A stretch of DNA of 36,426 nucleotides from a virus, in IMG/VR virus record IMGVR_UViG_3300009152_000104, positions 1 to 36,426 of that record, one strand, 5' to 3'. Each line of letters starts with the position of its first letter. The first letter of the stretch is position 1. Positions 580 to 36,426 of the stretch are shown piece after piece. A program made the position numbers and the translations under genes. The notes below the pieces were generated by a model. That model made no database searches and was not told where the DNA came from. It saw only the letters and a list, made by a program, of their open reading frames with translations.

Positions 580-912
580 ATGAAAAAAGTAATTAGACTA
601 ACAGAATCAGATTTAACAAGAATTGTTAAACGTGTAATTAATGAAAATGACAACTATAAAGACAGAAGTATGTATGATCCGTACTATAGTGAAGAACTTC
701 AAGAGTTAATTGAAGAGGCGAGAGATTTCCTTGAAAATGAATGTGGATATGACATTGAAGAAATCAATTCAATGGATGAATTTGATATTATTGAGGCGTT
801 ATATGCTGATAATAATGAAGATTTAGCTGATGAAATTGAAAAATTATTAAACCAAGAAGGTTTTTATAATGCCGATGAGGACGAAGACTTTGATGATGAA
901 GAATATGCATAA
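580..912 (+). CDS. Small acidic protein with putative capsid-targeting N-terminus
   Basis: The 110-residue protein opens with a basic amphipathic segment, RLTESDLTRIVKRVINE at residues 6-22. The rest is strongly acidic and ends in a run of Asp and Glu. Six other proteins in the window start the same way, and in each the segment ends in Ile-x-Glu. The major capsid protein carries INE where T4 gp23 is cleaved. I infer that residues 1-22 direct the protein into the prohead and are cut off after E22. T4 internal proteins behave this way (capsid-targeting sequence cut by gp21). The acidic mature part has no recognised domain. TATTTATT lies 13 bp upstream of the ATG. Confidence 0.75.
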   Translation: MKKVIRLTESDLTRIVKRVINENDNYKDRSMYDPYYSEELQELIEEARDFLENECGYDIEEINSMDEFDIIEALYADNNEDLADEIEKLLNQEGFYNADEDEDFDDEEYA

Positions 913-935: not shown

Positions 936-1268
936 ATGAGAAATAGATTAACAGAAAGAGACTTATCACGTATTGTTAAACGTGTAATTAATGAAAATAA
1001 AGAGGGTATGATTCGTATCCCAAGTATGTATGAGGGTGTTAGAATGGAACTTGGAAAAAGTGCTAACCCACAAGATGTCATTGACATGTATAATGAACTT
1101 GTTGAAGAGGGGTCTACTCTTGTTGACTATTCTGAGTATGGAACTGAAGGTATGTTTTATAATGAAGAAGGTGATGAGATCCCTGTTAATGTAATTCTTG
1201 ATGAACTTAACTACGCAATAGTTGGTGAAGAAGATGAAGATTACGACGATGAAGATGGAAATTATTAA
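936..1268 (+). CDS. Small acidic protein with putative capsid-targeting N-terminus (second copy)
   Basis: The protein has 110 residues and starts 23 bp after the preceding gene ends. Its N-terminus contains RLTERDLSRIVKRVINE (residues 4-20), nearly identical to the preceding protein; the DNA coding for RIVKRVINEN is also almost identical. Between that segment and an acidic Asp/Glu tail the sequence differs (VRMELGKSANPQDVIDMYNELV). The pair looks like an old tandem duplication that kept the leader and diverged in the cargo. Cleavage is predicted after E20. The function of the mature part is unknown; internal head protein is the best guess. Confidence 0.75.
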   Translation: MRNRLTERDLSRIVKRVINENKEGMIRIPSMYEGVRMELGKSANPQDVIDMYNELVEEGSTLVDYSEYGTEGMFYNEEGDEIPVNVILDELNYAIVGEEDEDYDDEDGNY

Positions 1269-5907: not shown

Positions 5908-7527
5908 ATGAAATATCGTTTAAGAATAAAAATAACATTAGTTATCGCCGCTTTACTAATGATTGCATTTATGTGTGTTAAAATTGCGGTTCTTATTGGG
6001 TTACGAGAATCTACAGAAACAACTAGATGGCTAGAATTTTTTGGGGTTATTTCTCTCATCCCTATATCTGCGTTATTAATTAAAGACTTTATCAATTCCA
6101 CTAAAGATACTGTATCTAAAGAATCGGTGGATAAATTGGTAGAATTAGAACATTTCTTAAATTCTTCTTCCATCATATCTAAAGCTGATGCAAAAGGAAA
6201 GATTACATACGTTAATCAAAAATTTACCGAAATCTCAGGTTATTCATTAGAAGATGTTCTTGGTAAAGACCACAATATTGTAAATTCTGGAACACACCCA
6301 AAAGAGTTTTGGTCTAATATGTATAAAACTGTTGTTGTGAATAAGGGTCTTTGGAATGAGGTTTGTGTCAATAGGGCAAAAGATGGAAGTCTTTATTATG
6401 TGGATACTTTTATTAAATGTAGTTTTGATGAAAACGGTAAATTGTTAGAGTTTATGTCAATTCGTCAAGACTTAACTTCTTTAAAAAAGACTGAACAAGA
6501 AATATCAAATAGAATGAATGCGATTAACAGATCAAATGCCGTTATTGAATTTGATTTAGATGGTAACATAAAATTTGCAAATGATTTATTTTTAAGTACT
6601 TTAGGTTATGATTCGCACGATGAACTTGTTGGAAAACATCATAGTATATTTGTTGAAGATGTGGTAAAAGACTCTGAAGAATATTCAAACTTTTGGAAAA
6701 CTTTAAAAGGTGGTCAATTCTTTATGGGTGAAATCATTAGAAAGAAAAAAAACGGATCTTTAATTTATCTCCAAGCGACATATAACCCCATCATAGGAAC
6801 CGATGGGAAACCATATAGAGTAATGAAAATCGCCACTGACATCACCCAAAGTATTAATCAACAAATGGAGATTGAAAAGAAAAATACCTATTTAGAGCAT
6901 GCCGCAAAGATATTAAGACACGATATGCACTCTGGTATTAATACATATATGCCAAGAGGATTAAGCTCTTTAGAACGAAGATTAACTCCTGAAGATATAA
7001 AAAATTTAAAAATAGAATCCCCACTTAGAATGATTAAAGAAGGTTTAAAACATTCTCAAAAAGTATATAAAGGGGTTTACGAATTTACCAATTTGGTTAA
7101 AAAAGATGTTGTTTTAAATAAAGCGGAATGTGATTTAAAATTAATCCTATCTGATTATCTATCATCTACTGCATATATTAGTCAAGTTATTATAGATGAG
7201 TTACCAACTATTGAGGTAAACGAAGCACTATTTTGTACTGCGGTTGATAACTTGATTAGAAACGGTTTAAAGTATAATGATTCGGATTCTAAATTTGTTA
7301 AAATAACTTCAGACGAGAATTATGTTTACATTCAAGATAATGGTAGAGGAATCACACAAGAAGATTTTGACCACCTATGTAAACCATATACAAGAAAAGA
7401 AGGACAAAAAGAATCTGGTACTGGTTTGGGATTAAATATTTGCGTTGCTATTTTAGAAGAACACGGGTTTAATATTACCTGTGAGAAAAATGAAATAGGA
7501 ACAAAAATAAAAATAAAAATAAAATAA
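5908..7527 (+). CDS. Membrane PAS-PAS sensor histidine kinase
   Basis: The 539-residue protein has two N-terminal membrane helices (about 8-31 and 43-60). Two PAS/PAC domains follow (about 85-195 and 205-320; YVNQKFTEISGYSLEDVLGK is typical PAS). A dimerisation/phosphoacceptor box ILRHDMHSGINTYMPRG carries His338. The ATPase domain has an N box (DNLIRNGLKYN, 448-457), G1 (DNGRGI, 477-482) and G2 (GTGLGLNI, 504-511). All residues for autophosphorylation are present, so it should be active. The short gap between helices argues against a large external sensor; PAS ligands are probably cytoplasmic. The receiver gene begins 18 bp downstream. The start ATG follows TATTTATT (5897-5904) by three bases. 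A full sensor kinase is rare in a phage. Confidence 0.92.
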   Translation: MKYRLRIKITLVIAALLMIAFMCVKIAVLIGLRESTETTRWLEFFGVISLIPISALLIKDFINSTKDTVSKESVDKLVELEHFLNSSSIISKADAKGKITYVNQKFTEISGYSLEDVLGKDHNIVNSGTHPKEFWSNMYKTVVVNKGLWNEVCVNRAKDGSLYYVDTFIKCSFDENGKLLEFMSIRQDLTSLKKTEQEISNRMNAINRSNAVIEFDLDGNIKFANDLFLSTLGYDSHDELVGKHHSIFVEDVVKDSEEYSNFWKTLKGGQFFMGEIIRKKKNGSLIYLQATYNPIIGTDGKPYRVMKIATDITQSINQQMEIEKKNTYLEHAAKILRHDMHSGINTYMPRGLSSLERRLTPEDIKNLKIESPLRMIKEGLKHSQKVYKGVYEFTNLVKKDVVLNKAECDLKLILSDYLSSTAYISQVIIDELPTIEVNEALFCTAVDNLIRNGLKYNDSDSKFVKITSDENYVYIQDNGRGITQEDFDHLCKPYTRKEGQKESGTGLGLNICVAILEEHGFNITCEKNEIGTKIKIKIK

Positions 7528-7545: not shown

Positions 7546-7983
7546 ATGATTGATTCAATTTTATTAGTAGATGATGAGGATTTATTCCATTTGGTATTTG
7601 AAGACGCTTGTTCGTTACTTGACATAAGTTTGTCTTTAAATGCGTTAAATAGTTCTGACGAGGCAGCAAAACTATTTCAAAAATGGTTCCAGGATGGTGA
7701 CAATAATGATAAACCTGAATGTGTGTTTGTTGACTTAAACATAATTGGTAGTTCTTTTGATGGTATAGAGTTAATTAGAAAAGTTAATTTTGAATATGGT
7801 AATCACGTAGTTATTGGTATCATATCATCATCAAACGAACCGGAAGAACAAGCAAAAGCGCTCCAGGCTGGTGCTCAATTCTGGATTATTAAATCAGATG
7901 ATATTGAACCTCGTTTAGAAGAGTTCAGAAAGGATTATGAGGGGTATAAAAATAGAACATTACCTTTTAAAGTATATAAATGA
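7546..7983 (+). CDS. Stand-alone response-regulator receiver protein
   Basis: The 145-residue protein is a single REC domain. It begins MIDSILLVDDEDLFHLV, with the acidic pocket at D9-D10-E11, phospho-acceptor D63 in VFVDLNI, the Ser/Thr switch in ISSSNEP (94-96) and the conserved Lys in IIKSDD (116). No DNA-binding or enzymatic output domain is attached, so output must come from protein-protein contact, as with CheY or Spo0F. The cognate kinase lies immediately upstream. The next gene, a membrane coiled-coil protein, overlaps its stop by four bases (ATGA) and is the natural candidate for the output partner. Confidence 0.92.
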   Translation: MIDSILLVDDEDLFHLVFEDACSLLDISLSLNALNSSDEAAKLFQKWFQDGDNNDKPECVFVDLNIIGSSFDGIELIRKVNFEYGNHVVIGIISSSNEPEEQAKALQAGAQFWIIKSDDIEPRLEEFRKDYEGYKNRTLPFKVYK

Positions 7984-8666: not shown

Positions 8667-9491
8667 ATGTTATTAAAAAATGGATCCAAAGGAGAGGATG
8701 TAAAAAAACTCCAAACAAAATTAGGACTTACTGCGGACGGATCATTTGGTCATGGAACAGAAAAAGCGGTAAAAGAATGGCAATTATCTAATGGATTAAC
8801 CTCAGATGGTATTGTTGGTGATGGTACTTGGTCTAAAATGTTCGGAACAACTCAGGTAGTTAAAGAAGATTTTGTAATTCCTTCAGGTGGACCATTAAAC
8901 ATTGAAAAATTAAAAGGTCATATTCCTGATGTTGTTATTGCCCAAATCCCTGAAACTGCAAAGAAATTTAATATCACAACCAATCTTAGACTTGCTCACT
9001 TTTTATCACAGTGTGGACACGAGTCAGGAGGATTTAAGGCGGTGTCAGAAAATTTAAATTATTCTGCTGACGGATTAAAAAGAACGTTTGGTAAATACTT
9101 TCCTGGTAACTTGGCCGAATCATACGCTAAACAACCTGAAAAGATCGCATCAAGGGTATATGCTAACCGTATGAGTAACGGAGATGAGACATCAAAAGAA
9201 GGTTATAAATTTAGAGGTAGAGGTTACATACAATTAACAGGAAAAGGAAATTATACGAGTTTTACAAAATTTATTGGTGAGGATTGTGTGTCAAATCCTG
9301 ATCTTGTTGCGACCAAATATCCATTGGCTTCGGCAGCGTTCTTTTTTGACTCAAACAAACTTTGGTCAATATGTGATAAGGGGGCGGATGATGTCACAGT
9401 TACCGCAGTTACAAAACGAGTTAATGGTGGAACTATTGGATTACCTGATAGAATAAAACACTTCAAAGAGTACTATAACTTATTAAAGTGA
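8667..9491 (+). CDS. Endolysin: peptidoglycan-binding domain plus GH19 muramidase/chitinase-like domain
   Basis: The 274-residue protein has an N-terminal PG_binding_1 module (residues 1-60; LLKNGSKGEDVKKLQTKLGL, DGIVGDGTWSKMF). A glycoside hydrolase family 19 type catalytic domain follows (about 80-274). Catalytic Glu119 is in SQCGHESGGF, and the family signature FRGRGYIQLTG is at 182-192. It cleaves the glycan backbone of peptidoglycan at the end of infection. There is no signal sequence, so release depends on the holin encoded 37 bp downstream. The order endolysin-holin after the signalling genes suggests a single operon. Confidence 0.93.
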   Translation: MLLKNGSKGEDVKKLQTKLGLTADGSFGHGTEKAVKEWQLSNGLTSDGIVGDGTWSKMFGTTQVVKEDFVIPSGGPLNIEKLKGHIPDVVIAQIPETAKKFNITTNLRLAHFLSQCGHESGGFKAVSENLNYSADGLKRTFGKYFPGNLAESYAKQPEKIASRVYANRMSNGDETSKEGYKFRGRGYIQLTGKGNYTSFTKFIGEDCVSNPDLVATKYPLASAAFFFDSNKLWSICDKGADDVTVTAVTKRVNGGTIGLPDRIKHFKEYYNLLK

Positions 9492-9778: not shown

Positions 9779-10432
9779 ATGAAGAAATTAATTTCAGAAT
9801 CGGAAAAAACCAGAATTAGAAAAATGAATTCTATTGAGGAAGGTTGGTTTTCTGATGTTCTTGATACCATAAAAAAATCAGATACGATAAAAGATATTAA
9901 GAAAAAATTTAAAGAATTAACTGGAGTTGATTTTGAAGAAAAAGAAAAGACAGGAGAAGTAACAAAAGAATATAAAAGTTACAAAATTGAAGATCCTTCA
10001 GACGAAGACATAAAATTCTACGAAAAAGTTTTAGAAAAAATAGACGCACCTATAACAAAGGAAAATATGGCGTTTTTTTATTCTTGGAGACAAGCCGAAG
10101 GGGCAAAATCTTCATACAATCCATTTAACACAACACAATCTATGCCTGAATCTACGTTTTGGAATTGTTTAAGTAAAAAAGAGGGTAAATGTCTTAGTGG
10201 TGTTAGAAATTATAAAAACGAAAAGGACGGTATTGAAGCAACCGTAAAAACATTGACAAATGGTAGATATGATTGTATTGTTAATGGATTGAAAAAAAAT
10301 AAAGGAGCAAAAGAGATTGCTCAATGTTCTAGTTTAGATACTTGGGGAACAAAAGACGGAATTAGTAAAGTTTTAAGTGTAGGAAAAATAACTCCACCTG
10401 AAATCTCAAGATCATTAGTTAAAAAAGTTTAA
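9779..10432 (+). CDS. Lysozyme-like protein with putative capsid-targeting N-terminus
   Basis: The 217-residue protein starts MKKLISESEKTRIRKMNSIEE and is predicted to be cut after E21. The C-terminal domain (about 85-217) has RQAEGAKSSYNPFNTTQ, LSGVRNYKNEKDGIEATVKTL and NGRYDCIVNGLK. This is the pattern of lysozyme/transglycosylase-like domains in phage and actinobacterial proteins (AEG...NP..TTQ...G..NY...dG..AT..TL). Glu107 is the likely catalytic acid. A muramidase in the virion would help DNA entry by local murein digestion. TATTTATC lies 17 bp upstream. Confidence 0.75.
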   Translation: MKKLISESEKTRIRKMNSIEEGWFSDVLDTIKKSDTIKDIKKKFKELTGVDFEEKEKTGEVTKEYKSYKIEDPSDEDIKFYEKVLEKIDAPITKENMAFFYSWRQAEGAKSSYNPFNTTQSMPESTFWNCLSKKEGKCLSGVRNYKNEKDGIEATVKTLTNGRYDCIVNGLKKNKGAKEIAQCSSLDTWGTKDGISKVLSVGKITPPEISRSLVKKV

Positions 10433-10437
10433 TAAAT

Positions 10438-11046
10438 ATGGAAAGTTATGTAGGAATTATAATAGCATTTATAACAGGAGTTGTTGGTCCCATATTACTT
10501 CTTTATATTAAAAAGAAATTAGAGAATAAAGAAAAACCGGATATGGTTAAAGACACATTGAGGGTTGCGGAGTTGGTAACAAACAAAATAGAACATATTA
10601 AAGATGAATTTAATGCCGATAGAGTTTGGATAACTCAATTTCACAATGGAGGTAACTTCTACCCAACAGGTAAATCAATGGCTAAGTTTTCAATAATGTA
10701 CGAAACAGTACATCCAGGAGTTCAATCCGTACAAACTAATTTTCATAATATTCCCGTAAATTTATTTTCAAAATCAATAAATCAATTATTAAGTAATGAT
10801 GTAATTGAGGTGTCCGACTTCAAAGATGAAACAATTGCAACATACGGATTAAAATACATTGCCGAAGACACGGGATGTAAATCAAGTTACTTATTTGCAA
10901 TTAAAACAATTGATGATAGGTTTATAGGTACTTTAGGTCTTGATTACACAAAAAGAAAAACAAAACTTGACATTGAATCAATAAATCATTTATTGGTTCA
11001 TGCAACCTCTTTAGGTGGAGTTTTAATGACGCACTTACAACAATAA
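10438..11046 (+). CDS. Membrane-anchored GAF-like sensor protein
   Basis: The 202-residue protein begins with a membrane helix (YVGIIIAFITGVVGPILLLY, residues 4-23) and a basic stop-transfer (KKKLENKEK). A cytoplasmic domain (about 38-200) has GAF-like wording: DRVWITQFHNGGNFYPTG, a variable ligand-facing middle and SSYLFAIKTIDDRFIGTLGL. There is no kinase or cyclase output domain. It starts five bases after the lysozyme-like gene. With the PAS kinase upstream, it is the second sensor-type protein near the lysis genes. The ligand is unknown. Confidence 0.7.
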   Translation: MESYVGIIIAFITGVVGPILLLYIKKKLENKEKPDMVKDTLRVAELVTNKIEHIKDEFNADRVWITQFHNGGNFYPTGKSMAKFSIMYETVHPGVQSVQTNFHNIPVNLFSKSINQLLSNDVIEVSDFKDETIATYGLKYIAEDTGCKSSYLFAIKTIDDRFIGTLGLDYTKRKTKLDIESINHLLVHATSLGGVLMTHLQQ

Positions 11047-11047
11047 T

Positions 11048-11078
11048 TTTGTAAATACAATTAAAGTTCATATCTTTA
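11048..11078 (+). promoter_or_regulatory. Bacteroidota-type promoter (TTTG-N19-TATCTTTA)
   Basis: TTTG 11048-11051 and TATCTTTA 11071-11078, four bases before ATG 11083, implying a leaderless or almost leaderless mRNA. Confidence 0.65.
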
Positions 11079-11082
11079 CGGT

Positions 11083-11565
11083 ATGAATATTTTCTTTTTA
11101 GATTTTGATACAAAAAAATGCGCTCAATATCATTGTGATAAACACGTTGTCAAGATGATATTAGAAACCGCACAACTTTTATGTGGGACTCACTGGGTAA
11201 TTGGAAATGAGGCCCCATATAAATTATCCCACAAAAATCACCCATGTTCAATATGGGTTAGAGAGTCCCTCTCAAATTATCTTTATTTATGTGATCTTGG
11301 TTTGGAGTTATGTAAAGAATACACTTATCGATATGGTAAAAGACACAAATCTCAGGATGTAATAGAATGGTGTTTAATAAATAAACCAAATATCCACGAT
11401 GTTGATTTTACATCCCCACCATTAGCGATGGGTGATGAATTTAAAATAGGAAACGATGTGATCGAATCATATAGAAATTATTACCGAGAAGGAAAAAAAC
11501 TTATCGTTAGTTGGAAAAACAGGGTTATTCCAAGTTGGTTTCAACCCGACGAAGTATTTATATGA
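11083..11565 (+). CDS. Conserved phage/bacterial protein of unknown function (HCDKHVVKM motif)
   Basis: The 160-residue protein starts MNIFFLDFDTKKCAQYHCDK, followed by HVVKMILETAQLLC, then NHPCSIWVRESLSNYLYLCDLGLELCKEYTYRYGKRHKS and SPPLAMGDEFK. I recognise this as a small protein common in phage genomes, but no reaction is established to my knowledge. Several conserved His and Cys residues (QYHCDKH, NHPC) suggest a metal site. The following gene overlaps its stop by four bases (ATGA), so both are translated from one mRNA. Confidence 0.75.
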   Translation: MNIFFLDFDTKKCAQYHCDKHVVKMILETAQLLCGTHWVIGNEAPYKLSHKNHPCSIWVRESLSNYLYLCDLGLELCKEYTYRYGKRHKSQDVIEWCLINKPNIHDVDFTSPPLAMGDEFKIGNDVIESYRNYYREGKKLIVSWKNRVIPSWFQPDEVFI

Positions 11566-13100
11566 TAAAATCATATATGAAACATTTTTTATCTGAAGAA
11601 ATAAGAAGAATAAAAACATTAATGTCAATTAATGAATCAATAGATACTACGGCACCTAAATTTTCAACTAAAATATTTGATAAAGTGGATCCTACTTGGG
11701 GAGGAGGACCTAATTCACATGCCGCAAGACATCCAGACCCAACAGGAAAGGATTGGTGGAGTAATAACGCCTACGATATAATGGCACCTGAAGGTACACC
11801 TGTTTATTCAATATCCGATGGATATGTTGATAAAATTACAGATAACCCTCCCGGATTAAAATCTAGTGGAGGTAAAAGAATTTATGGTGACAGTATTACC
11901 GTTAGGGGTAGTGGTGGTAATCCTGACGTTTTTTATACCCATATTACAAATATTGTTGTTGAGGATGGGGATCCTATTAAAAAAGGTCAATTACTTGCAT
12001 ATATCGTAAAGGGTGAGTTAGGAATTCCTGATCATGCACACGTTTCAGTTAAAGTTGGTGATGTTAAAGATTTCGTTGACGTAAACGGTAATATTGAGGG
12101 TGTGGATAATAGTTTATTAGGTAATTTATCAATTACAACAAGTAAAGGTGAAGAAACCCCTATTGACACTAAAACAATAATGGGTACGGCAGCCGGATTA
12201 ACCGCAGCCGCTCTAAGTTCTTTAGATATTAAAAGACCTGAATCGGATATAAGTGGTATTGCTTCAAGATTTGGTATTACAGACGTTGATGTTAATACTG
12301 ATTCCGTATCTGGAGTCTTAAATAAAATAATACTATCTTCAGAAGGTATCGGTACCGATGAAACTTCAATACATGATGCAATTAAAAAATTAAGTAGTTG
12401 TTATGAACTTGATGAACTAAATAAAATGGTTGAAAGAAAGGAAATTGATGGGAAAAAATATAAAGACGTATTTGATTACATTAATAGTGAAATGAATTAT
12501 GGAGATGAACTATTTGTTAAAAGTTTAGTTAAAACAATAAATAATATTTGTCCAAATACTGTAACAGATAAAGGGAACCAAATTTTACGTGTTAATAAAA
12601 GTATTTACGTAGGTGGAGGAATTGATAAAGTAGTTCCAATAAAACTTCTTAATGATTTAAAATCTTATGGTCTTTCAGATAATGCCGCCAAAGGAGTTGT
12701 TGCAAACGCTTTTGGTGAAAGTGTTTTTAACGTTAAGGCTAAAGGGGATTCAGGAAGTTACGGGGAAAGTTCAAATAGATCAATAAACATTGATGGTAAA
12801 AAATACTGTTCTTTTGGTTTATGGCAATATAATATTTGTGGTGGAATGGGAGTTTCATTCTTGAAGAACTATAACGTAAATGTTGATACTTCTTCAGATG
12901 AAGAAAAATTAAGAATTTTATTTGATTATAATAAACAAGTTGAGTTTATGTCAAAAAGAATAAAAGAAGAACAAATTAACAGTGAGAAGGACGTAAGAAC
13001 TTGGATAGATTGGATTGTTGATAATGTTGAGAGACCTTCAGATAGGACTTCCGCAAAAATAAAAAGGCAAGAATTTGCAAAACAACAAGGATGGTCTTAA
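11562..13100 (+). CDS. Large cell-wall hydrolase: M23-like plus phage lysozyme-like domains, capsid-targeting N-terminus
   Basis: I chose ATG 11562 (512 aa) for its ATGA overlap with the previous gene; ATG 11577 is also possible. The N-terminus MKHFLSEEIRRIKTLMSINE fits the Ile-x-Glu leader. Next is an M23/LytM-like domain (NNAYDIMAPEGTPVYSISDG, then DHAHVSV). The first zinc-ligand position reads Asn where His is usual, while the HxH is kept. A middle segment (GIGTDETSIHDAIKKLSSCY) resembles an annexin-like repeat. The C-terminal part (AAKGVVANAFGESVFNVKAK, SFGLWQYN) resembles phage tail lysozyme (Phage_lysozyme2-like). Likely role: virion-carried murein digestion during DNA entry, if the leader reading is right. 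Confidence 0.8.
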   Translation: MIKSYMKHFLSEEIRRIKTLMSINESIDTTAPKFSTKIFDKVDPTWGGGPNSHAARHPDPTGKDWWSNNAYDIMAPEGTPVYSISDGYVDKITDNPPGLKSSGGKRIYGDSITVRGSGGNPDVFYTHITNIVVEDGDPIKKGQLLAYIVKGELGIPDHAHVSVKVGDVKDFVDVNGNIEGVDNSLLGNLSITTSKGEETPIDTKTIMGTAAGLTAAALSSLDIKRPESDISGIASRFGITDVDVNTDSVSGVLNKIILSSEGIGTDETSIHDAIKKLSSCYELDELNKMVERKEIDGKKYKDVFDYINSEMNYGDELFVKSLVKTINNICPNTVTDKGNQILRVNKSIYVGGGIDKVVPIKLLNDLKSYGLSDNAAKGVVANAFGESVFNVKAKGDSGSYGESSNRSINIDGKKYCSFGLWQYNICGGMGVSFLKNYNVNVDTSSDEEKLRILFDYNKQVEFMSKRIKEEQINSEKDVRTWIDWIVDNVERPSDRTSAKIKRQEFAKQQGWS

Positions 13101-14496: not shown

Positions 14497-14994
14497 ATGA
14501 AAAGAATAATTAGACTAACAGAATCAGATCTTGCAAGAATAGTAAGAAGAGTAATTAGTGAAGGATTTGCTCAAAATACTGTTTTAGCGTTTGATTCGGT
14601 AACTGGATATAAAAGTGCATTGTTCCCGCAATTACAATATAAAAAAAATGGGACGGCATGGGACGTAAATTTTGCGGGTAGTAAAACTTTAGGAAATTTA
14701 ATGAATATGAGAGATGGAAGTTTCCAAGTAGTTAACACAGAGGCAGACCCAACAAATATAGATCAAAGGACGGCATTTGGTGTTTTCCTTAATACAACCC
14801 CTAAAACAAGAGCTGAGGTAGAAACTGCGGTTAAGGCCGTGGTCCAAGGAGGATATAAAGACCCGTTCACAATCAAGGCCGGTGGTAAAACTAAAAACGC
14901 AAAAGGTGTATTAGTTACTTGGGGTCGACCTGGATTTACGGCTGGAAGCGAAATGACTGATGCAATTTGTAAATTGTATAACGTTACCGCATAA
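14497..14994 (+). CDS. Head-targeted protein candidate, cargo domain unknown
   Basis: The 165-residue protein begins MKRIIRLTESDLARIVRRVI and reaches ISE at 20-22, almost identical to the leader of the 580 gene. Cleavage is predicted after E22, leaving GFAQNTVLAF onward. The mature part is moderately basic, has no membrane helix and no known motif; beta strands and one long helix (RAEVETAVKAVVQGG) are likely. It is convergent with a secreted-protein gene (15031-15477, minus) and shares a two-way terminator with it, the same layout as 18022/18559. Confidence 0.78.
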   Translation: MKRIIRLTESDLARIVRRVISEGFAQNTVLAFDSVTGYKSALFPQLQYKKNGTAWDVNFAGSKTLGNLMNMRDGSFQVVNTEADPTNIDQRTAFGVFLNTTPKTRAEVETAVKAVVQGGYKDPFTIKAGGKTKNAKGVLVTWGRPGFTAGSEMTDAICKLYNVTA

Positions 14995-18021: not shown

Positions 18022-18510
18022 ATGATAAAATTTATAATCTCAGAACAAGAAAAAAGTAGAATTTTGGAAATGCACCAAAACGCTACATCAAGACATTATA
18101 TAATGGAACAATCTCTTGCTAACACTCAAGCCGCGGCATTTGTTAATGAATTTAACAGAGTTATGACGGCATATAAATTACCTGCATACACCGCAAAATT
18201 TGTAAAAGGAGCTGATGATTATCACGGAAATATAGTTATTTACAAAGATGGTAAAGAATTAGTTAAATCACCACAAGATTTTGGTGTCGCAATTACCGCA
18301 AACTTATCAACAGGTGTACAACAAGAAAAGGACCCATTAGACAACTACGGAACAAAAATAGTGGATGGTAAACTAATGCAGTTTAGCGGTAGTTTAGTAA
18401 ATGTTTTAAATACTGCAGATGCTGCAGTTAAAGATAAACTTGCAATTGCCGTTAGAAGTGGGATAGATGCGGTTAAAAAAACTTTATTAACTTCCCCAAC
18501 CCAAAAATAA
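18022..18510 (+). CDS. Head-targeted protein candidate (162 aa), cargo unknown
   Basis: The N-terminus MIKFIISEQEKSRILEMHQN continues to YIMEQ at residues 26-30. Ile-x-Glu occurs at ISE and, in the expected place at the end of the basic helix, at IME, so cleavage is predicted after E29. The leader resembles that of the lysozyme-like 9779 protein (SEsEK.RI..M). The mature domain is alanine-rich with a KDGKELVK turn and a C-terminal helix (AVRSGIDAVKKTLLTS); no motif is known. It is convergent with a secreted-protein gene (18559-18981, minus), as at 14497/15031. Confidence 0.72.
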   Translation: MIKFIISEQEKSRILEMHQNATSRHYIMEQSLANTQAAAFVNEFNRVMTAYKLPAYTAKFVKGADDYHGNIVIYKDGKELVKSPQDFGVAITANLSTGVQQEKDPLDNYGTKIVDGKLMQFSGSLVNVLNTADAAVKDKLAIAVRSGIDAVKKTLLTSPTQK

Positions 18511-21545: not shown

Positions 21546-21549
21546 TTTG

Positions 21550-24080: not shown

Positions 24081-25014
24081 AAATCATATTTTAACTTTGT
24101 TAGAACACGGATTGTCATTTAACACTATTAGTAATTTAAATGACTTACAAATTAAGGTATTATCCGAAAAATTTACAAAAAAAGAAGAGAATAAAGAAGC
24201 GGTAACAAAGACTGTATATCAACCAACAAAAAACCCAAAAGATATGGAAGCAGTTCAGGCTATGGTAACAAAAGCAGACCCAAACGCTTCAGTTGAGTTA
24301 GATGAGAAATTTGAATCAAAATCCCAACAAGGATTATTTTGGTCAAAATGTAAAAATAGTACAGGAAAAACAAAAGAAAAATGGTGTAACATGGCTAAAG
24401 AATTTTCTGATAGTACATCTAAAAAAGATTATAAAAAAATGCCAGAAAAAAAACATCCCGAAAAAACGGTTAAAAAAACAACTAAAAAAACTAATGAAAA
24501 TTTAGAAAGATTTTTAGAAGATAGAATTGTTAACATGTTGGATGAATATGTGAACCCAACGTTTACAAAAGGTCAAATGATTAATACAATATCTGAAAAA
24601 ACAGAAAAATTTAATTCTATGTTTTTGAAAACCCCAAAAAAAATGTCTATGTTTTCAAACGAATCTGGAATTGAAATGAAAAGTATGAAAAGGCCTATTG
24701 GTAGAATCTCTTCTTTAGGGGAAGACACAAAAGAAAAAGAAAGAACTAAGGAAAAAGAAAGAACTAAGGAAAAAGAAAGAAGAAAGGGTAACCCTTTTAA
24801 AGACCCTAATCCTGACGTAGAAGAAAAACCTAAAGCAAATACAAAAGAAAAAGAAAGAACTAAGGAAAAAGAAAGAACTAAGGAAAAAGAAAGAAGAAGG
24901 GATAATCCTTTTAAAGATCCTAATCCTGATGTTAAGGAAAATCCAAAAGCAAAAATGGAAAAACAACAAAGTGGTTTCATTGATGCAATAATGAACATAT
25001 TAAATTTTAACTAA
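24070..25014 (+). CDS. Lysine-rich protein with duplicated KEKER repeat block
   Basis: I prefer ATG 24070 (314 aa, 11-bp overlap with the previous gene) to the upstream in-frame ATG 24028 (53-bp overlap). The N-terminal third is folded (HILTLLEHGLSFNTISNLND). Residues about 75-125 contain FWSKCKNSTGKTKEKWCNMA with two Cys. The C-terminal third has two 38-residue copies of a charged block, each with three TKEKER units and NPFKDPNPDV. The final helix is hydrophobic (FIDAIMNILNFN). Very high lysine content fits a DNA- or scaffold-contacting core protein; this is inference. Confidence 0.7.
   Translation: MNPKNHILTLLEHGLSFNTISNLNDLQIKVLSEKFTKKEENKEAVTKTVYQPTKNPKDMEAVQAMVTKADPNASVELDEKFESKSQQGLFWSKCKNSTGKTKEKWCNMAKEFSDSTSKKDYKKMPEKKHPEKTVKKTTKKTNENLERFLEDRIVNMLDEYVNPTFTKGQMINTISEKTEKFNSMFLKTPKKMSMFSNESGIEMKSMKRPIGRISSLGEDTKEKERTKEKERTKEKERRKGNPFKDPNPDVEEKPKANTKEKERTKEKERTKEKERRRDNPFKDPNPDVKENPKAKMEKQQSGFIDAIMNILNFN
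24727..24954 (+). repeat. Tandem duplication, two 114-bp copies in frame
   Basis: 24727-24840 and 24841-24954 are near-identical 38-codon units. Each contains three 18-bp subrepeats (ACTAAGGAAAAAGAAAGA-like). Copies differ at a few sites, mainly near the 3' ends. Confidence 0.9.
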
Positions 25015-26378
25015 TGGGACATAAATATATTGAGAGTTTAGTGAGGAAAATCATAAACGAGGCTCCTGTTGATTATGGGGATTATCCAGAAAGAATGGAC
25101 CCTAGAGTACAACAAAAGATTGAGGATCCCGAAAGTATCTATGCAAAAAATAGAGGGTTTCAAGGAGGAGTATCTGATGTTGAGAGGTTATCAGGAGACA
25201 GATTCAAAGAGATTGTTGATTACGTAAAAAGATATTATACCACTGAAAGAAATATAACAGATCCTTCGGTAATGGCCGCGATTCAAATGGAACAAATGAT
25301 GGCGGTTAGACAAGCAATGACCAAAGAGCCAAGACATAGAGAAAAACTTAGAGATCTTGCAGTTGAAATTAAGGCCAAAGAAAATGGTTGGATGCCTAAT
25401 AATATTACAATGGAAAATGCGTTAAGGGAAGGTCTTGTAAAAAAAAGAAAATCTAAGGATGGTGGGACCATTTATGAATTTGAATTGATGAATCTTTTAA
25501 CTTTCCTTGGGGAACAATCTATAGACCCAACTATATTTCAGATGAAACCTAAAAAAAATGAAAAACTACCAATACCTGCAAACTTTTCATTTGACATTGA
25601 TGAATTAACTCCAGAAGAAGAAAAACAATTGGAGATTGAAAAACGACACGTTATAAATGCATATGTGATGGGTAAGGCAAAAAGAGGTCAATACGCTTAT
25701 CAGGAATATAAAGATAGATTAGACGCTATAGACCCATCTTTATATGAATTGTATAATAAAATTATGGGAGCAAATGATTTAATGTATTTTACCAACCAAC
25801 AACTAATTGAAATGTTGGGGGGTAATGCGGCAGGATCGGCAGGTAAAGCCAAACCAGAACAAAGCGATGAAGATGAGGATGACGACCAAAGTGGTGAAGA
25901 AATGGATAAAGATACTTGGTTTGCAAATGGATTAATCTTCCCAATTCTATTACATGAAGTTGATAAAGCATTTGGTATGGTTACCGCAAGACAACAGTGG
26001 AAAGGAATGAATCCTGAAATGGCACAACAAGTTATTAGTCAAACTGACACAATGGAACATGAACCAATGAACTTCAGAATTGGTGCTGAATTAGCAAGAA
26101 AAATTAGAACAATGTTACCTGAAGAATTAGTTTTAGATCCTGATGGTCGTATTTATATGCCGTTCTTTGAAAAGAACCTTTATGAGGTACCGGCGGAAAG
26201 ATTCCTAAAACAAATAATTGCAAATGTTGTTTCAAATAGAAAAGAAGATAACGCAAAAGCGGTTAAAGAATTTAAGGACATTTTTGAAAAGGCTAAAAAG
26301 GAATATCAGAGATTTAAAGGTGAAGATGATGAGGATGATGAATATAATTATGATAATGATGATGATTTATCCTACTAA
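25014..26378 (+). CDS. Head-targeted 454-aa protein in the head operon
   Basis: The start overlaps the previous stop by one base (TAATG). The leader MGHKYIESLVRKIINE ends in INE at residue 16, giving predicted cleavage E16-A17. The body is largely helical and methionine-rich (SVMAAIQMEQMMAVRQAMTK), has an acidic linker (SDEDEDDDQSGEEM) and ends in an Asp/Tyr-rich tail (DDEDDEYNYDNDDDLSY). No enzymatic motif is seen. Its place directly upstream of the terminase and its leader suggest a head-interior or portal-associated structural protein. A strong terminator follows. Confidence 0.75.
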   Translation: MGHKYIESLVRKIINEAPVDYGDYPERMDPRVQQKIEDPESIYAKNRGFQGGVSDVERLSGDRFKEIVDYVKRYYTTERNITDPSVMAAIQMEQMMAVRQAMTKEPRHREKLRDLAVEIKAKENGWMPNNITMENALREGLVKKRKSKDGGTIYEFELMNLLTFLGEQSIDPTIFQMKPKKNEKLPIPANFSFDIDELTPEEEKQLEIEKRHVINAYVMGKAKRGQYAYQEYKDRLDAIDPSLYELYNKIMGANDLMYFTNQQLIEMLGGNAAGSAGKAKPEQSDEDEDDDQSGEEMDKDTWFANGLIFPILLHEVDKAFGMVTARQQWKGMNPEMAQQVISQTDTMEHEPMNFRIGAELARKIRTMLPEELVLDPDGRIYMPFFEKNLYEVPAERFLKQIIANVVSNRKEDNAKAVKEFKDIFEKAKKEYQRFKGEDDEDDEYNYDNDDDLSY

Positions 26379-28479: not shown

Positions 28480-30294
28480 ATGGAACAAAACGAAAAAAAT
28501 TTAACGATTTGGCAAAGATTATCCAAAACGTTCGGACCTAATTCATTATTAGGGATGGATGATCCTACCTATAGGTTTGATAAAAAAGAAATATTAAAGA
28601 CTACCGATAAGTCTAAATTTGAAAAAGAGAAATTAGAAATACAACAAACTTTATTTTTAAGTGATAATTGGAAAAAGATTGAAAATAACTTATACAGTCA
28701 AGCGGTATATTATGAACCAAACAGAATTTCTGCATTCTACGATTACGAATCTATGGAATATACTCCAGAAATCTCAACGGCCTTGGATATATATGCTGAG
28801 GAGTCAACAACATCAAACCATGATGGGTTTATATTACAAGTTTATTCTGAATCACAAAGAATTAAAAGTATCTTAGTAGATTTATTTAATAATAATTTAG
28901 ATATTAATACAAACTTACAAATGTGGGTAAGAAACATGTGTAAGTATGGTGATAACTTTGTTTACTTAAAACTTGATCCTGAAAAAGGTATTGTAAGTTG
29001 TATGCAATTACCTAATATTGAAATTGAAAGATTAGAAAGAGGCATGGAAGCCAGAACTATGAACACCACTCCATCAATAAAAAACGAGAAAAACTTAAGG
29101 TTTACTTGGAAAAATAAGGATATGGAGTTTAACACTTGGGAAATGGCCCATTTTAGATTGCTAGGTGATGATAGAAAATTACCATATGGTACATCAATGT
29201 TAGAAAAGGCTCGTAGAATATGGAAACAACTTGTATTAGCGGAAGATGCTATGTTAATTTATAGAACATCAAGAGCTCCCGAAAGAAGAGTATTTAAAGT
29301 CTTTGTTGGTAATATGGACGATAAAGATGTTGAGGCTTACGTACAAAGAGTTGCGAATAAATTTAAACGAGATCAAATTGTTGATTCTAAAACAGGTAAT
29401 GTTGATTTACGTTTCAACCAAATGGCGGTAGATCAAGATTACTTTATTCCTGTTAGGGACGCAACACAGACAATGCCTATTGAGACATTGGCGGGAGCCG
29501 CAAATCTTTCTGAGATTGCTGATATTGAATATATCCAAAAGAAATTATTAACCGCATTAAGAATACCAAAAGCGTATATAGGTTTTGAGGAAGCGGTGGG
29601 TGATGGTAAAAATTTATCTTTATTAGATATTAGATTTGCAAGAACTATTCATAAAATACAAAAAAGTATAATTTCGGAATTAAATAAAATTGCGATTATA
29701 CATTTATTTTTACTTGGGTTTGAGGATGAATTAAATAACTTTACTTTAGGTTTAACTAACCCATCTAAACAGGCCGATCTATTAATGGTTGAGGTATGGA
29801 AAGAAAAGGTTTTATTGTATAAGGATATGGTTACAGAAATTCCAAATTCACTACAACCTACATCCGCAACTTGGGCTAAAAAACATATTTTTGGTTTTTC
29901 TGATGAAGAAATTAAATTAGAATTACAACAAATAAGATTAGAAAGGGCGGTGTCAGCCGAATTGGCAAATACACCAACAATAATTACTCACACAGGATTC
30001 TTTGATACTGTAGATAAACTTTATAAAACTCAAACAGGAAGTACCCAAACTGCGGGTGCCGATCCAGCAGCAGGAGGGTCAACACCTCCACCAATGGGAG
30101 GAGGACCACCTCCACCACCTGGAGGAGCAGAGTCGGCAGGAGGACCACCAATCCCTGAAAGTATTAAGAAAAATAATTTAAACTTACTTTTAGAAAGTGA
30201 TGATATATTTGGGGATGAATATATTGATTTATCAAAGGCGTCAAATTCTTTAGGGGATATAGAACAAGAACTTGATAAATTACTAAACAGTTAA
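28480..30294 (+). CDS. Portal protein (gp20-like)
   Basis: The 604-residue protein has the length and landmarks of T4-type portals: YYEPNRISAFYDYESMEYTP early, the clip/stem region with RIWKQLVLAEDAMLIYRTSR, then APERRVFKVFVGN and DYFIPVRDATQTMPIETLAG, and LLTALRIPKAYIGFEEAVGD. It forms the dodecameric ring through which DNA passes and nucleates prohead assembly. The C-terminus adds a Pro/Gly-rich tail (TPPPMGGGPPPPPGG) and an acidic end not typical of gp20. It lies between terminase and protease as in T4. Confidence 0.95.
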   Translation: MEQNEKNLTIWQRLSKTFGPNSLLGMDDPTYRFDKKEILKTTDKSKFEKEKLEIQQTLFLSDNWKKIENNLYSQAVYYEPNRISAFYDYESMEYTPEISTALDIYAEESTTSNHDGFILQVYSESQRIKSILVDLFNNNLDINTNLQMWVRNMCKYGDNFVYLKLDPEKGIVSCMQLPNIEIERLERGMEARTMNTTPSIKNEKNLRFTWKNKDMEFNTWEMAHFRLLGDDRKLPYGTSMLEKARRIWKQLVLAEDAMLIYRTSRAPERRVFKVFVGNMDDKDVEAYVQRVANKFKRDQIVDSKTGNVDLRFNQMAVDQDYFIPVRDATQTMPIETLAGAANLSEIADIEYIQKKLLTALRIPKAYIGFEEAVGDGKNLSLLDIRFARTIHKIQKSIISELNKIAIIHLFLLGFEDELNNFTLGLTNPSKQADLLMVEVWKEKVLLYKDMVTEIPNSLQPTSATWAKKHIFGFSDEEIKLELQQIRLERAVSAELANTPTIITHTGFFDTVDKLYKTQTGSTQTAGADPAAGGSTPPPMGGGPPPPPGGAESAGGPPIPESIKKNNLNLLLESDDIFGDEYIDLSKASNSLGDIEQELDKLLNS

Positions 30295-31788: not shown

Positions 31789-32508
31789 ATGAAAATATTA
31801 GGACCTAATGAAATTGGAAAGGGCATTCTTATAGAATATGATGCGGGATACATTAATCCAAGAACTGTAAACAATCAATATATACTTGAGTCTAATAATA
31901 ATAATTTAGACCATTCAAAACCATTTGAATTTTATGCGGTATTACAAAAATACGATACCCCAAATAGAAACGGTAGAATTTACCCTGAAAAAATTCTAAA
32001 AAGAGAATCTGAGAATTATAAAAAAATGATCGATAAGGGAACCTCTCTTTCTGAATTAAATCACCCTGAATCATCATTAATTGATTTAGATAGAGTTTCA
32101 CACATTATCACCGAAGTTTGGTGGGATGGTCCGGTTCTTTTAGGTAAATTGAGATTACTTACAAGTCCAGGATTTCATGAAAGTGGTATATGTTCAACAA
32201 AAGGTGACTTAGCGGCAAATTACCTAAGACAAGGAGTTACTTTAGGTATATCCTCTCGTGGTGTAGGATCATTAAAAAAGGTTGGAGAACAAAACGAAGT
32301 ACAGGATGATTTTGAACTTATATGTTTTGATTTAGTGTCTTCACCATCAACTCCTGGTGCTTATTTATTCTTAGATAAAAATGACAGATCAAAATTTGAT
32401 GAGAATTTAGAAGAAAATAAAAAAATGTCAGTAGAAAGAAATGTTGGTGAATCCGGAAATAAATCTCTTGACTTAATGAAAAGATTAACCGATTATTTGG
32501 GTAAATAA
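31789..32508 (+). CDS. Prohead protease (gp21-like)
   Basis: The 239-residue protein has the conserved block KYDTPNRNGRIYPEKIL, His92 in SELNHPES and the nucleophile Ser in LGISSRGVGS (155-156), matching the T4 gp21 (S80-type) serine protease family. It matures proheads by cleaving after (I/L)-x-Glu in scaffold, capsid and internal proteins. Several such sites exist in other proteins of the window, including INE-S in the capsid protein. TATTTATT (31768-31775) lies 13 bp upstream. Confidence 0.95.
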   Translation: MKILGPNEIGKGILIEYDAGYINPRTVNNQYILESNNNNLDHSKPFEFYAVLQKYDTPNRNGRIYPEKILKRESENYKKMIDKGTSLSELNHPESSLIDLDRVSHIITEVWWDGPVLLGKLRLLTSPGFHESGICSTKGDLAANYLRQGVTLGISSRGVGSLKKVGEQNEVQDDFELICFDLVSSPSTPGAYLFLDKNDRSKFDENLEENKKMSVERNVGESGNKSLDLMKRLTDYLGK

Positions 32509-34617: not shown

Positions 34618-36426
34618 ATGGGAGCATTATTAGAATCAGGTCTTGTTGGTAATATTGGGTTAAAACACCTTAAAGTTATCAAAGAAGACACAATTAACAA
34701 ATGGGATAGATTAGGATTCCTTGAAGGCCTTAAAGGTCACCTAAAAGAAAACGTAGCACAGTTATATGAAAACCAAGCTTCTTTCTTGATTAACGAATCA
34801 ACTTCTGAAACTTCTAACGGAGCGTTCGAAACTGTTGTTTTCCCTATCGTAAGAAGAGTTTTCTCTAAATTGTTAGCGAATGATATCGTATCAGTACAAG
34901 CAATGAACTTACCAATCGGTAAATTGTTCTTCTTTGTACCTCGTATACAAGGGTATAATTCAGACCCTGCAATTGCCAATCCAGGTGGAACTCACTATTC
35001 TCCAATCGGATCTCCACAAGCAATTGCTGATGGTAATAATGATCCTAACCAAGGATATCCAGGTGGACCAGGAACACCATACACTAAAAATCTTTATGAT
35101 TTATTTTATGAAGGTAATGAGGCAGGATTAGATCCTCCAGGATTGTTCGATTACTCAAAAGGTCAGTGGACTGCGGTAACTCAACCGGCTATTGCACAAG
35201 TATGGTCAGGTTCAAACTTAGTTGCAGCGACTAACCAATTTGACGGTGAAGTTACAAGAAAAATGATTGTTAAACTTTGTGGATTTAATAACGCAGGTGT
35301 TGGTAAATTAATAGGACCTGATGGTAACGAAATCGATACTGAAACTTTCTTATCAGATCTTAAAATCGTTGCAGACTTAAGTGTGTTAACAGGATCTACA
35401 GGTTGTCCTAATTTAGATGAACTTGGAAATACAAATTTATCCGCACCATTATTATTTAGAGTTGTTACTCAAATTTATGGTAAAGGTATTGTACAACCTA
35501 CATCATCATCATTCCAAACTACTTACCCAACTAACGGTAACGGTGGTTCTTTCAATGACATTTGTAGCCAAGATGGTTGTATCTATTTAGAAGTTGATCT
35601 TTCTTGTCCAGCATGTGCTGATTGTGGAGCAACTACATTAGATGGTTACACAGGAACAACAATTGGTGAATTAACGAATAATACAGCCACTTTAGGATCA
35701 TCTCCATTCCAAGCTGTTTATAGAAGATATAAAAGTTTAGAATTCGAAGATCAAATTGGTGAAGTTTCTTTTGACCTTGAGTCAGTTACTGTATCTGTTA
35801 CAGAAAGAAAACTAAGAGCACAATGGTCTCCTGAATTAGCACAAGACGTTGCTGCATTCCATAACATCGACGCTGAGGCTGAATTGACGGCATTGTTGTC
35901 AGAACAAGTTGCAGCTGAGATCGACCGTGAAATTTTACGTGACTTACGTAAAGGAGCGGCTTGGAACCTACGTTGGGATTACAACGGATGGAGAAGACTA
36001 CAATTAACTACATCTTATACTCAAAAAGATTGGAACCAAACTTTGATCACTGCGATCAATCAGTTGTCGGCACAAATCCACAAATCTACTTTAAGAGGTG
36101 GAGCTAACTGGATCGTTGTTTCTTCTGAGGTTTCTGCAATCTTTGATGACTTAGAATACTTCCACGTATCTAACGCATCTCCTGAGCAAGATCAGTATAA
36201 CATGGGTATTGAGAGAGTTGGTACTTTGTCAGGACGTTACCAAGTTTACCGTGATCCTTACTTCCCTGCAAACACAGTTTTAATGGGTCATAAAGGAACA
36301 TCTTTACTTGATACAGGTTATATTTATGCACCTTATGTACCATTACAATTAACACCGACAATGTATAACCCATTCAATTTTACACCAATTAAAGGTATAA
36401 TGACAAGATACGCTAAAAAGCTGGTT
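34618..36426 (+). CDS. Major capsid protein (gp23-like), 3' end outside the window
   Basis: 603 codons are visible and no stop is reached. Matches to T4 gp23 include RRVFSKLLANDIVSVQAMNL with PIGKLFF, ERKLRAQWSPELAQDVAAFH with NIDAEAELTALLSEQVAAEI, and FNFTPIKGIMTRYAKKLV near the right edge. The N-terminal propeptide ends SFLINE-STSE at residues 55-64, aligning with the gp23 cleavage site SFLTE-AEIG. Cleavage is predicted after E60. Compared with gp23 (521 aa) it is longer, with an insert holding five Cys (316, 321, 330, 333, 336). Late-type motif upstream. Codon use is less AT-biased, as expected for a highly expressed gene. Confidence 0.96.
   Translation, partial: MGALLESGLVGNIGLKHLKVIKEDTINKWDRLGFLEGLKGHLKENVAQLYENQASFLINESTSETSNGAFETVVFPIVRRVFSKLLANDIVSVQAMNLPIGKLFFFVPRIQGYNSDPAIANPGGTHYSPIGSPQAIADGNNDPNQGYPGGPGTPYTKNLYDLFYEGNEAGLDPPGLFDYSKGQWTAVTQPAIAQVWSGSNLVAATNQFDGEVTRKMIVKLCGFNNAGVGKLIGPDGNEIDTETFLSDLKIVADLSVLTGSTGCPNLDELGNTNLSAPLLFRVVTQIYGKGIVQPTSSSFQTTYPTNGNGGSFNDICSQDGCIYLEVDLSCPACADCGATTLDGYTGTTIGELTNNTATLGSSPFQAVYRRYKSLEFEDQIGEVSFDLESVTVSVTERKLRAQWSPELAQDVAAFHNIDAEAELTALLSEQVAAEIDREILRDLRKGAAWNLRWDYNGWRRLQLTTSYTQKDWNQTLITAINQLSAQIHKSTLRGGANWIVVSSEVSAIFDDLEYFHVSNASPEQDQYNMGIERVGTLSGRYQVYRDPYFPANTVLMGHKGTSLLDTGYIYAPYVPLQLTPTMYNPFNFTPIKGIMTRYAKKLV

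What the first reader, a model, noticed from the sequence alone, without database searches (positions are those of the whole stretch)
9779..13100. Two murein hydrolases with capsid-type leaders rather than tail association
The lysozyme-like 9779 protein and the 512-aa M23/lysozyme-like 11562 protein both have Ile-x-Glu leaders. Cell-wall enzymes used for entry are normally on the tail (T4 gp5). Packaging inside the head and ejection would be a different entry mechanism.
Basis: inference. Interest (0 to 1): 0.55.

Follow-up and report, generated by a model that had tools for sequence, protein, structure and literature searches.

The report
Wall-cutting enzymes tagged for phage head
Two cell-wall-cutting enzymes of a giant T4-like phage begin with a short tag of the kind that T4 uses to load proteins into its head and then snip off, so they are probably carried inside the head and injected with the DNA, although nobody has yet looked in the virus particle.

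Summary
Window 9779-10432 and 11577-13100 (better start than 11562) encode murein-hydrolase-type proteins whose N-termini end in (I/L)-x-E, the published T4 gp21 cleavage motif. The window encodes its own gp21-like S77 protease, and its major capsid protein carries the same site (LINE|S versus SINE|S).

The leaders belong to a modular family. In IMG/VR, 203 non-redundant proteins share type A or B leaders on unrelated bodies; 202 of 203 have the second (I/L/V/M)-x-E at residues 20-36, and conservation collapses just after it. S77 is in 21 of 25 large leader contigs and 6 of 16 control contigs.

Several unrelated hydrolase types carry such leaders: M23, Phage_lysozyme2, GH19 and the 9779 lysozyme-like domain (40 of 47 proteins; control windows 104 of 393). 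Two phages hold both a leaderless GH19 endolysin and a leader-bearing GH19 protein, which separates the tagged enzymes from lysis.

Best reading: prohead-targeted, protease-trimmed, co-ejected entry hydrolases. Head location, cleavage and ejection are inferred. T7 gp16 is a published precedent for a capsid-carried murein hydrolase; a capsid-targeting-type route in T4-like phages is a new variant. Counter-evidence: 7 of 9 bacterial genomes with a type A-like leader lack S77.

The parts
9779..10432 (+). Leader-bearing lysozyme-like murein hydrolase, 217 aa
   Evidence: ORF; homologues 73-75% identical in L003, L005; catalytic-type E107 invariant in the 49-sequence domain alignment (E38 there)
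9779..9841 (+). Leader, 21 aa; (I/L)-x-E after residues 7 and 21; predicted mature start G22
   Evidence: Type B leader profile E 1e-5 against best decoy 0.023; I19 and E21 invariant in homologues
9986..10429 (+). Lysozyme-superfamily (GH73-like) domain
   Evidence: AlphaFold2 pLDDT 95.3 with 49 sequences; best structural neighbours are peptidoglycan hydrolases, Z 5.5-7.7; Pfam Glucosaminidase weakly in 8 of 49 members
11577..13100 (+). Leader-bearing M23 + Phage_lysozyme2 protein, 507 aa (ORF open from 11562)
   Evidence: Pfam; start by homology to L010
11577..11636 (+). Leader, 20 aa (MKHFLSEEIRRIKTLMSINE|S); predicted mature start S21
   Evidence: INES invariant in three homologues; type C leader regular expression
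11766..12053 (+). Peptidase M23 domain
   Evidence: Pfam PF01551 E 4.9e-9; D72, H127, H158, H160 invariant
12648..13085 (+). Phage_lysozyme2 domain
   Evidence: Pfam PF18013 E 4.3e-9; E386 invariant
31789..32508 (+). Prohead protease, S77 (T4 gp21-like): the presumed leader peptidase
   Evidence: Pfam PF03420 E 3.8e-22; PHROG 207 head maturation protease 6.3e-42
34618..36426 (+). Major capsid protein (gp23-like), N-terminal propeptide ending FLINE60|S61; LINE|A in G001
   Evidence: PHROG 138; propeptide sequences
28480..30294 (+). Portal protein (gp20-like)
   Evidence: Pfam Portal_T4 E 8.6e-75
8667..9491 (+). Leaderless PG_binding_1 + GH19 endolysin: the contrast within the same cluster
   Evidence: Pfam, PHROG 181 endolysin 3.1e-65
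580..912 (+). Other cargo candidate with type A leader (MKKVIRLTESDLTRIVKRVINE|N)
   Evidence: Type A profile E 1.2e-17
936..1268 (+). Other cargo candidate with type A leader (MRNRLTERDLSRIVKRVINE|N)
   Evidence: Type A profile E 7.3e-11
14497..14994 (+). Other cargo candidate with type A leader (MKRIIRLTESDLARIVRRVISE|G)
   Evidence: Type A profile E 6.3e-17
18022..18510 (+). Other cargo candidate with type B leader (MIKFIISEQEKSRILEMHQNATSRHYIME|Q)
   Evidence: Type B profile E 5e-19
25014..26378 (+). Protein in the terminase-portal-protease cluster with a short leader (MGHKYIESLVRKIINE|A)
   Evidence: Sequence; type A profile E 0.32, not significant

Best explanation
9779 and 11577 are head cargo. 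Steps: (1) made late as precursors; (2) the 20-21-aa leader docks them to the prohead core, as capsid-targeting sequences do for T4 internal proteins; (3) the phage's S77 protease (31789) cuts after (I/L)-x-E during head maturation and leaves free hydrolases with the DNA; (4) they leave with the DNA through the tail and cut peptidoglycan locally, so that the tube or genome can pass; (5) a separate leaderless GH19 endolysin (8667) does lysis. Shown: the leaders, their family, the conserved sites, the protease, the hydrolase domains (9779's is likely, not proven) and the leaderless endolysin gene. Inferred: steps 1 to 5 as events.
For: Leader family: 202 of 203 non-redundant type A/B leader proteins have (I/L/V/M)-x-E at residues 20-30 (A) or 20-36 (B), outside the search patterns; with the 15-38 window it is 203 of 203 against 49 of 191 control stretches of the same proteins. 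Type A conservation falls from 133 of 145 (E22) to 46 of 145 at the next residue. Type B motif within 7 aa of an ATG in 76 of 84 unique matches. P3 is I/L in 140 of 146 (A) and 52 of 56 (B), P2 is free, as in the published gp21 motif L/I-x-E (PMC9026906 passages). S77 in 21 of 25 leader contigs of 100 kb or more against 6 of 16 controls, Fisher p 0.0057. The capsid protein carries LINE|S and LINE|A. 9779-type domain: 40 of 47 complete proteins have (I/L/V)-x-E at residues 7-36 against 104 of 393 control windows, p 5e-15. Related leaders occur on GH19 (L510, L511, L512, L513), lysozyme2 (L272/L497) and M23 (L275, L280, L282, L283) proteins of other phages. G012 and G014 each have a leaderless and a leader-bearing GH19. 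Among 10 tail-region and neighbouring proteins of G001 scanned, none matched a Pfam murein hydrolase.
Against: No virion proteomics; all from sequence. Of 9 bacterial genomes with a type A-like leader, 7 have no S77 match, and several of those loci look chromosomal with a transposase-like gene nearby (by eye), so the leader, at least its LHRIV variant, is not exclusive to S77 phages. The 11577 leader is not significant with the type B profile. The two genes lie beside the endolysin, as accessory lysis genes might. Leaderless M23 proteins also occur in these phages (L273, L276-L279, L285, L286, L288). Hub proteins without a recognised hydrolase went with leader-bearing hydrolases in 6 of 11 phages and hub-lysozyme phages with 0 of 3 (tallied by hand): too few to decide.
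Confidence: 0.66

Rival explanations
1. Prohead-targeted but not for entry: the hydrolases are packed and cut like other cargo, and serve after ejection in another way (for example envelope remodelling, exclusion of competitors), or the head is a safe store that keeps them off the wall.
For: The same leaders sit on many proteins without hydrolase domains, so the leader says where, not what for. The motif and protease evidence is shared with the best explanation.
Against: Phage_lysozyme2 and the 9779-type domain are also found in long putative hub proteins, the usual place of entry enzymes; peptidoglycan-binding domains are the commonest Pfam match on leader proteins (3 of 56 type B; 2 of 147 type A).
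Confidence: 0.15
2. Accessory lysis enzymes: the leader has another role (folding, inhibition, membrane contact) and the proteins act with the GH19 endolysin at the end of infection.
For: Both genes are within 4.5 kb of the endolysin in the window and in G001.
Against: In other phages leader-bearing hydrolases are far from the endolysin: G012 674 versus 79,696; G014 6,975 versus 199,768; G010 81,219 versus 115,806. None of the GH19 endolysins of the PG-binding type (12 of 16) carries a leader, while the 4 other GH19 proteins do.
Confidence: 0.1
3. Tail or neck parts: the leader targets the proteins to the connector or tail, and the protease trims them there; they work like T4 gp5.
For: The same domain families occur in putative hub proteins of relatives.
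Against: Those hub proteins are over 1,000 aa with the hub-like domain; 9779 and 11577 have no hub-like or other recognised tail domain, though Pfam names PF18013 'phage tail lysozyme'. In T4 the protease acts inside the prohead (PMC9026906 passages).
Confidence: 0.06
4. Chance I-x-E, with no processing.
For: The motif is short: 49 of 191 control stretches hold one.
Against: sites conserved in homologues.
Confidence: 0.03

Closest known systems
T4 internal head proteins (IPI-III, Alt) with capsid-targeting sequences cut by gp21
   Same: Short N-terminal leader ending in L/I-x-E; gp21-family (S77) protease in the same genome; leaders shared by otherwise unrelated proteins
   Different: Leaders are 20-29 aa with two I-x-E sites and no obvious sequence likeness to the 10-aa T4 leader (not tested by alignment); the cargo here is murein hydrolases
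T7 gp16 (internal core protein with peptidoglycan-degrading N-terminal domain)
   Same: Murein hydrolase stored in the head and ejected at entry (PMC8954989, PMC6116005 passages); for our proteins this is the proposal
   Different: gp16 is a 1,318-aa part of an ejectosome of a short-tailed phage; here separate small enzymes with a leader in a T4-like phage
T4 gp5 and other tail-associated lysins
   Same: Proposed job, local wall cutting at entry; same domain families occur in putative hub proteins of relatives
   Different: Not part of a tail protein; carries a prohead-type leader
P1 DarB and SPN3US ejection proteins
   Same: N-terminal signal or propeptide for head loading (PMC9024508, PMC5694885, PMC7411985 passages)
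   Different: Cargo is anti-restriction or other; several SPN3US propeptides are over 100 aa; no hydrolase cargo in the passages read
GH19 endolysin (8667 in this window)
   Same: Murein hydrolase class; leader-bearing GH19 proteins exist in relatives
   Different: PG-binding N-terminus and no leader

Membership tests
Capsid-targeting-sequence cargo of T4-like phages | N-terminal leader ending in L/I-x-E | tested here: met
Capsid-targeting-sequence cargo of T4-like phages | gp21-type (S77) protease in the same genome | tested here: met
   Window 31789-32508, Pfam 3.8e-22
Capsid-targeting-sequence cargo of T4-like phages | Leader shared by unrelated proteins of the phage | tested here: met
Capsid-targeting-sequence cargo of T4-like phages | Leader type confined to genomes with an S77 protease (my own consistency test, not a published defining feature) | tested here: not met
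   7 of 9 bacterial genomes with a type A-like leader have no S77 match; 21 of 25 viral contigs do
Capsid-targeting-sequence cargo of T4-like phages | Leader removed in the prohead and protein found in the head | not testable with these tools
   Needs virion mass spectrometry
Virion-associated lysin | Murein hydrolase domain | tested here: met
   11577: M23 and Phage_lysozyme2 over cut-off. Met for 11577 only; for 9779 see GH73
Virion-associated lysin | Present in the virion | not testable with these tools
   No proteomics held
GH73 / glucosaminidase (9779 domain) | GH73 fold and sequence | tested here: inconclusive
   VIA Z 7.7 to 3k3t, rmsd 4.2, 124 aligned; Foldseek E 1.9; Pfam Glucosaminidase in 8 of 49 members, best E 0.004; none for the window protein itself
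Endolysin | Same architecture as the phage's endolysin, no head leader | tested here: not met
   The endolysin is 8667, leaderless; 9779 and 11577 bear leaders and other domains
T7 gp16-like ejectosome protein | Large ejectosome protein with hydrolase domain and membrane-spanning C-terminus | not tested
   No comparison with gp16 was run; by length (217 and 507 aa) they are unlike it

The most novel reading that the evidence does not exclude
Large T4-like phages run a general head-loading address system (leader types A, B, C), with about ten tagged proteins in the one genome examined whole, and have used it more than once to move wall-cutting entry enzymes of several unrelated types from the tail hub to the head, as separate, protease-released, injected enzymes.
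Probability: 0.45. Interest if true: 0.78.

Novelty: new variant of a known kind. Interest (0 to 1): 0.62.

Why it matters
If right, one short sequence rule lists the injected proteome of a large group of uncultivated T4-like phages from sequence alone, including many proteins of unknown function. It would also show that the entry enzyme of a T4-like phage can be stored in the head and not on the tail tip, and would give new head-loading tags of the kind used to deliver proteins into bacteria.

Tried and rejected
Chance I-x-E: rejected. The leader as a bacterial host motif: the type A pattern gives only 63 matches in the bacterial and archaeal collection, 33 in frame, about 9 leader-like by eye, against a capped 120 stretches in the viral one; two of those nine genomes hold S77. 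The other seven stay unexplained. S80 protease in those nine genomes and in four leader contigs: no match in 13, but nothing rang anywhere, so uninformative.

Reversed type B pattern as control: 19 stretches in the whole viral collection against a capped 118 for the true pattern.

9779 folded with 3 sequences: poor (pLDDT 46), not used. Sequence searches of the 9779 domain in solved structures: nothing credible. tblastn in INPHARED: none at E 0.01 for the whole protein, three unconvincing hits at E 0.5-4 for the domain, so no cultivated phage was found to carry it.

Annexin: Pfam lists it for 2 of 56 type B leader proteins, and 11577 has a G(I/L)GTDE stretch, but Pfam did not call annexin in 11577; dropped.

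A dead lysozyme at the end of the hub protein in 11 leader phages: suggested to me by eye, unsupported by profile comparison, PDB profile search and Pfam; dropped as a claim. The hub tail of G017 was not in that set.

A 23-aa leader query in tblastn found nothing; too short to mean anything.

Microcystis phage Mel-JY01 and Flavobacterium phage immuto: no significant type A or B leader at E 0.01 (best immuto E 0.035, MKKQILSEQFKRMQFLAGIITES, suggestive only).

They collapsed to 53 unique N-termini; 6 cut by a contig end were left out and 47 counted; one of the 47 (L545) has no ATG. Alignment A6 holds 49 of these domains. Type A and B proteins shorter than 60 aa, and type B matches more than 8 aa from an ATG, were left out before the count of 285. 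In the GH19/M23/lysozyme2 reading, L284 (frame with a stop) was set aside.

Papers: only passages of PMC9026906, PMC5694885, PMC9024508, PMC7411985, PMC6116005, PMC8954989 and PMC9723584 were seen; others only in search listings. No paper prints the leader strings searched, and searches for head-targeted hydrolases in T4-like phages gave only the T4, P1 and SPN3US papers among relevant ones; subscription journals are missing, so prior mention cannot be excluded.
Full report
What is there. The window is a 36.4-kb fragment of a T4-like phage: terminase-like, portal, S77 prohead protease and major capsid protein genes lie at 26-36 kb, and ten tRNA genes at the left end. Close relatives of the two hydrolases lie in phage contigs of up to 274-291 kb. 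9779-10432 and 11577-13100 are the genes of the finding. Between 8667 and 9491 lies a leaderless PG-binding + GH19 endolysin.

The leaders. 9779 begins MKKLISESEKTRIRKMNSIEE|GWF and 11577 begins MKHFLSEEIRRIKTLMSINE|SID. In homologues of 9779 (73-75% identical) and of 11562 (68-78%) the terminal I-x-E is kept, with the middle residue of the 9779 site changing between E and D. The major capsid protein of the window has LINE|S at residues 57-61, and that of G001 LINE|A. T4 gp21 cuts after L/I-x-E, and T4's short N-terminal leaders load proteins into the prohead core before being cut off (PMC9026906, PMC7411985, passages).

The leaders are a family. Type B: MKKFxISExEKxRILxMHxxAxxxxYLxE; type A: MKKIIRLTESDLxRIVKRVIxE (consensus). 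After removing proteins alike in their bodies, 147 A and 56 B remained of 285. All 203 have (I/L/V/M)-x-E ending at residues 15-38, against 49 of 191 control stretches of the same proteins; in the narrower windows 20-30 (A) and 20-36 (B), 202 of 203. The second site is outside the searched patterns. In 145 type A proteins in register, E22 is present in 133, and the commonest next residue in only 46. For type B, whose pattern did not ask for a start codon, 76 of 84 unique matches begin within 7 residues of an in-frame ATG. The pattern read backwards has 19 matches in the whole collection. A profile of type B leaders without 9779's own family finds 9779 at E 1e-5, with the best of 1,505 internal decoys at 0.023; the 11562 start is at 2.3. 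The 11577 leader fits a third type, C, of which 21 N-terminal and 4 internal cases were found by a regular expression made after seeing it. G001 has about ten leader-bearing proteins with clear profile scores.

Link to the head. S77 is found in 21 of 25 leader contigs of 100 kb or more and 6 of 16 control contigs of that size, taken for a tRNA-like pattern; Fisher p 0.0057. The control is not matched for host or phage group. Against: of nine bacterial genomes holding a type A-like leader, two hold S77, seven do not; several of the seven loci look chromosomal with a transposase-like neighbour (my reading).

Hydrolases carry the leaders again and again. A search with the 9779 domain found 158 loci, 80 kept. 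Of 47 complete unique proteins, 40 have (I/L/V)-x-E at residues 7-36, against 104 of 393 other windows of the same proteins, p 5e-15; the leaders include type B, type C and very short forms. Nine of the 47 are fusions to a nucleotidyltransferase-like protein of the kind seen alone at window 21547; without these it is 34 of 38. In the 25 contigs searched with GH19, M23 and Phage_lysozyme2 models, leader-bearing GH19 (L510 to L513), lysozyme2 (L272) and M23 (L275, L280, L282, L283) proteins were read by eye and script; leaderless M23 proteins (L273, L276 to L279, L285, L286, L288) occur too. The N-terminal 60 or so residues of 9779 (leader plus a helical spacer) match GH19 proteins in G012 and G024 and, weakly (E 0.004), a lysozyme2 protein in G011: one N-terminal module on three unrelated enzymes. 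Of 16 GH19 proteins in 14 contigs, 12 are the leaderless PG-binding type, 4 bear leaders, and G012 and G014 have one of each.

What 9779 is. With 49 sequences the domain folds at pLDDT 95. The best VIA rows are a Sphingomonas peptidoglycan hydrolase (Z 7.7, rmsd 4.2, 124 aligned), FlgJ, autolysin Auto, a Staphylococcus amidase entry, a type VI effector and a class IV chitinase. Z below 8 can be a common arrangement only, and Foldseek's best E is 1.9. Pfam Glucosaminidase matches 8 of 49 members weakly. An invariant Glu (E38 of the domain, E107 of the protein) ends the second helix, where lysozymes have theirs (recalled). I take it as a GH73-like glycosidase, likely but unproven.

Tail or head. 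The hub-like protein of G001 (49,196-50,158 in a frame of about 2,140 aa) has relatives in 15 of 25 contigs, its own included. In G019, G020 and G021 Phage_lysozyme2 follows the hub-like domain in the same frame; in L562 the 9779-type domain does. In 11 others, scanned, no hydrolase was recognised after it; G017 was not scanned. 'Hub' is my reading of position and sequence; PHROGs did not name that domain. Leader-bearing hydrolases were found in 6 of those 11 phages and in 0 of the 3 (hand tally): a hint that enzymes moved from tail to head, not a result.

Mechanism and judgement. Best reading: prohead-targeted, trimmed and co-ejected entry hydrolases (0.66 overall). [quoted passage not shown]). 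The variant is the T4-type leader route and its repeated use with unrelated enzymes. Nothing here shows the proteins in a virion.

Noticed in passing
580-912, 936-1268, 14497-14994, 18022-18510: Four further proteins of unknown function with type A or B leaders: candidate injected head cargo of this phage.
   Followed up: partly
L315, L325, L331, L345, L366, L368, L369: Type A-like leaders (mostly an LHRIV variant) in bacterial genomes, mostly gut Bacteroidales, without an S77 match, some near a transposase-like gene: remnants of phages, or another use of the motif.
   Followed up: partly
21547-22284: Nucleotidyltransferase-like protein; in relatives the same kind of protein is fused to M23 (L285, L286) or to the 9779-type lysozyme domain (L559, L564, L577, L578 and others).
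   Followed up: no
5908-7527 and 7546-7983: By sequence reading a PAS/histidine-kinase-like protein followed by a response-regulator-like protein in a phage; not searched against a library.
   Followed up: no
11577-13100, about residues 255-345: Stretch with G(I/L)GTDE, like an annexin repeat, between the M23 and lysozyme domains; Pfam did not call annexin here, though it did in 2 of 56 type B leader proteins.
   Followed up: partly
L600, L603-L612 (end of the hub-like proteins): A C-terminal domain of about 250 aa shared by 11 phages without any credible library match.
   Followed up: partly
5244-5840, minus strand: Protein matching PHROG 3000 (1.3e-35) and an endolysin family (PHROG 33083, 5e-12): a possible further wall-acting enzyme, leaderless.
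   Followed up: no
NC_055915 (L030 25061, L032 record position 111675): Two proteins of the cultivated Flavobacterium phage immuto start MKKQILSEQF(K/R)RMQ-LAGIITES: perhaps another leader type in a phage that can be grown and tested.
   Followed up: partly
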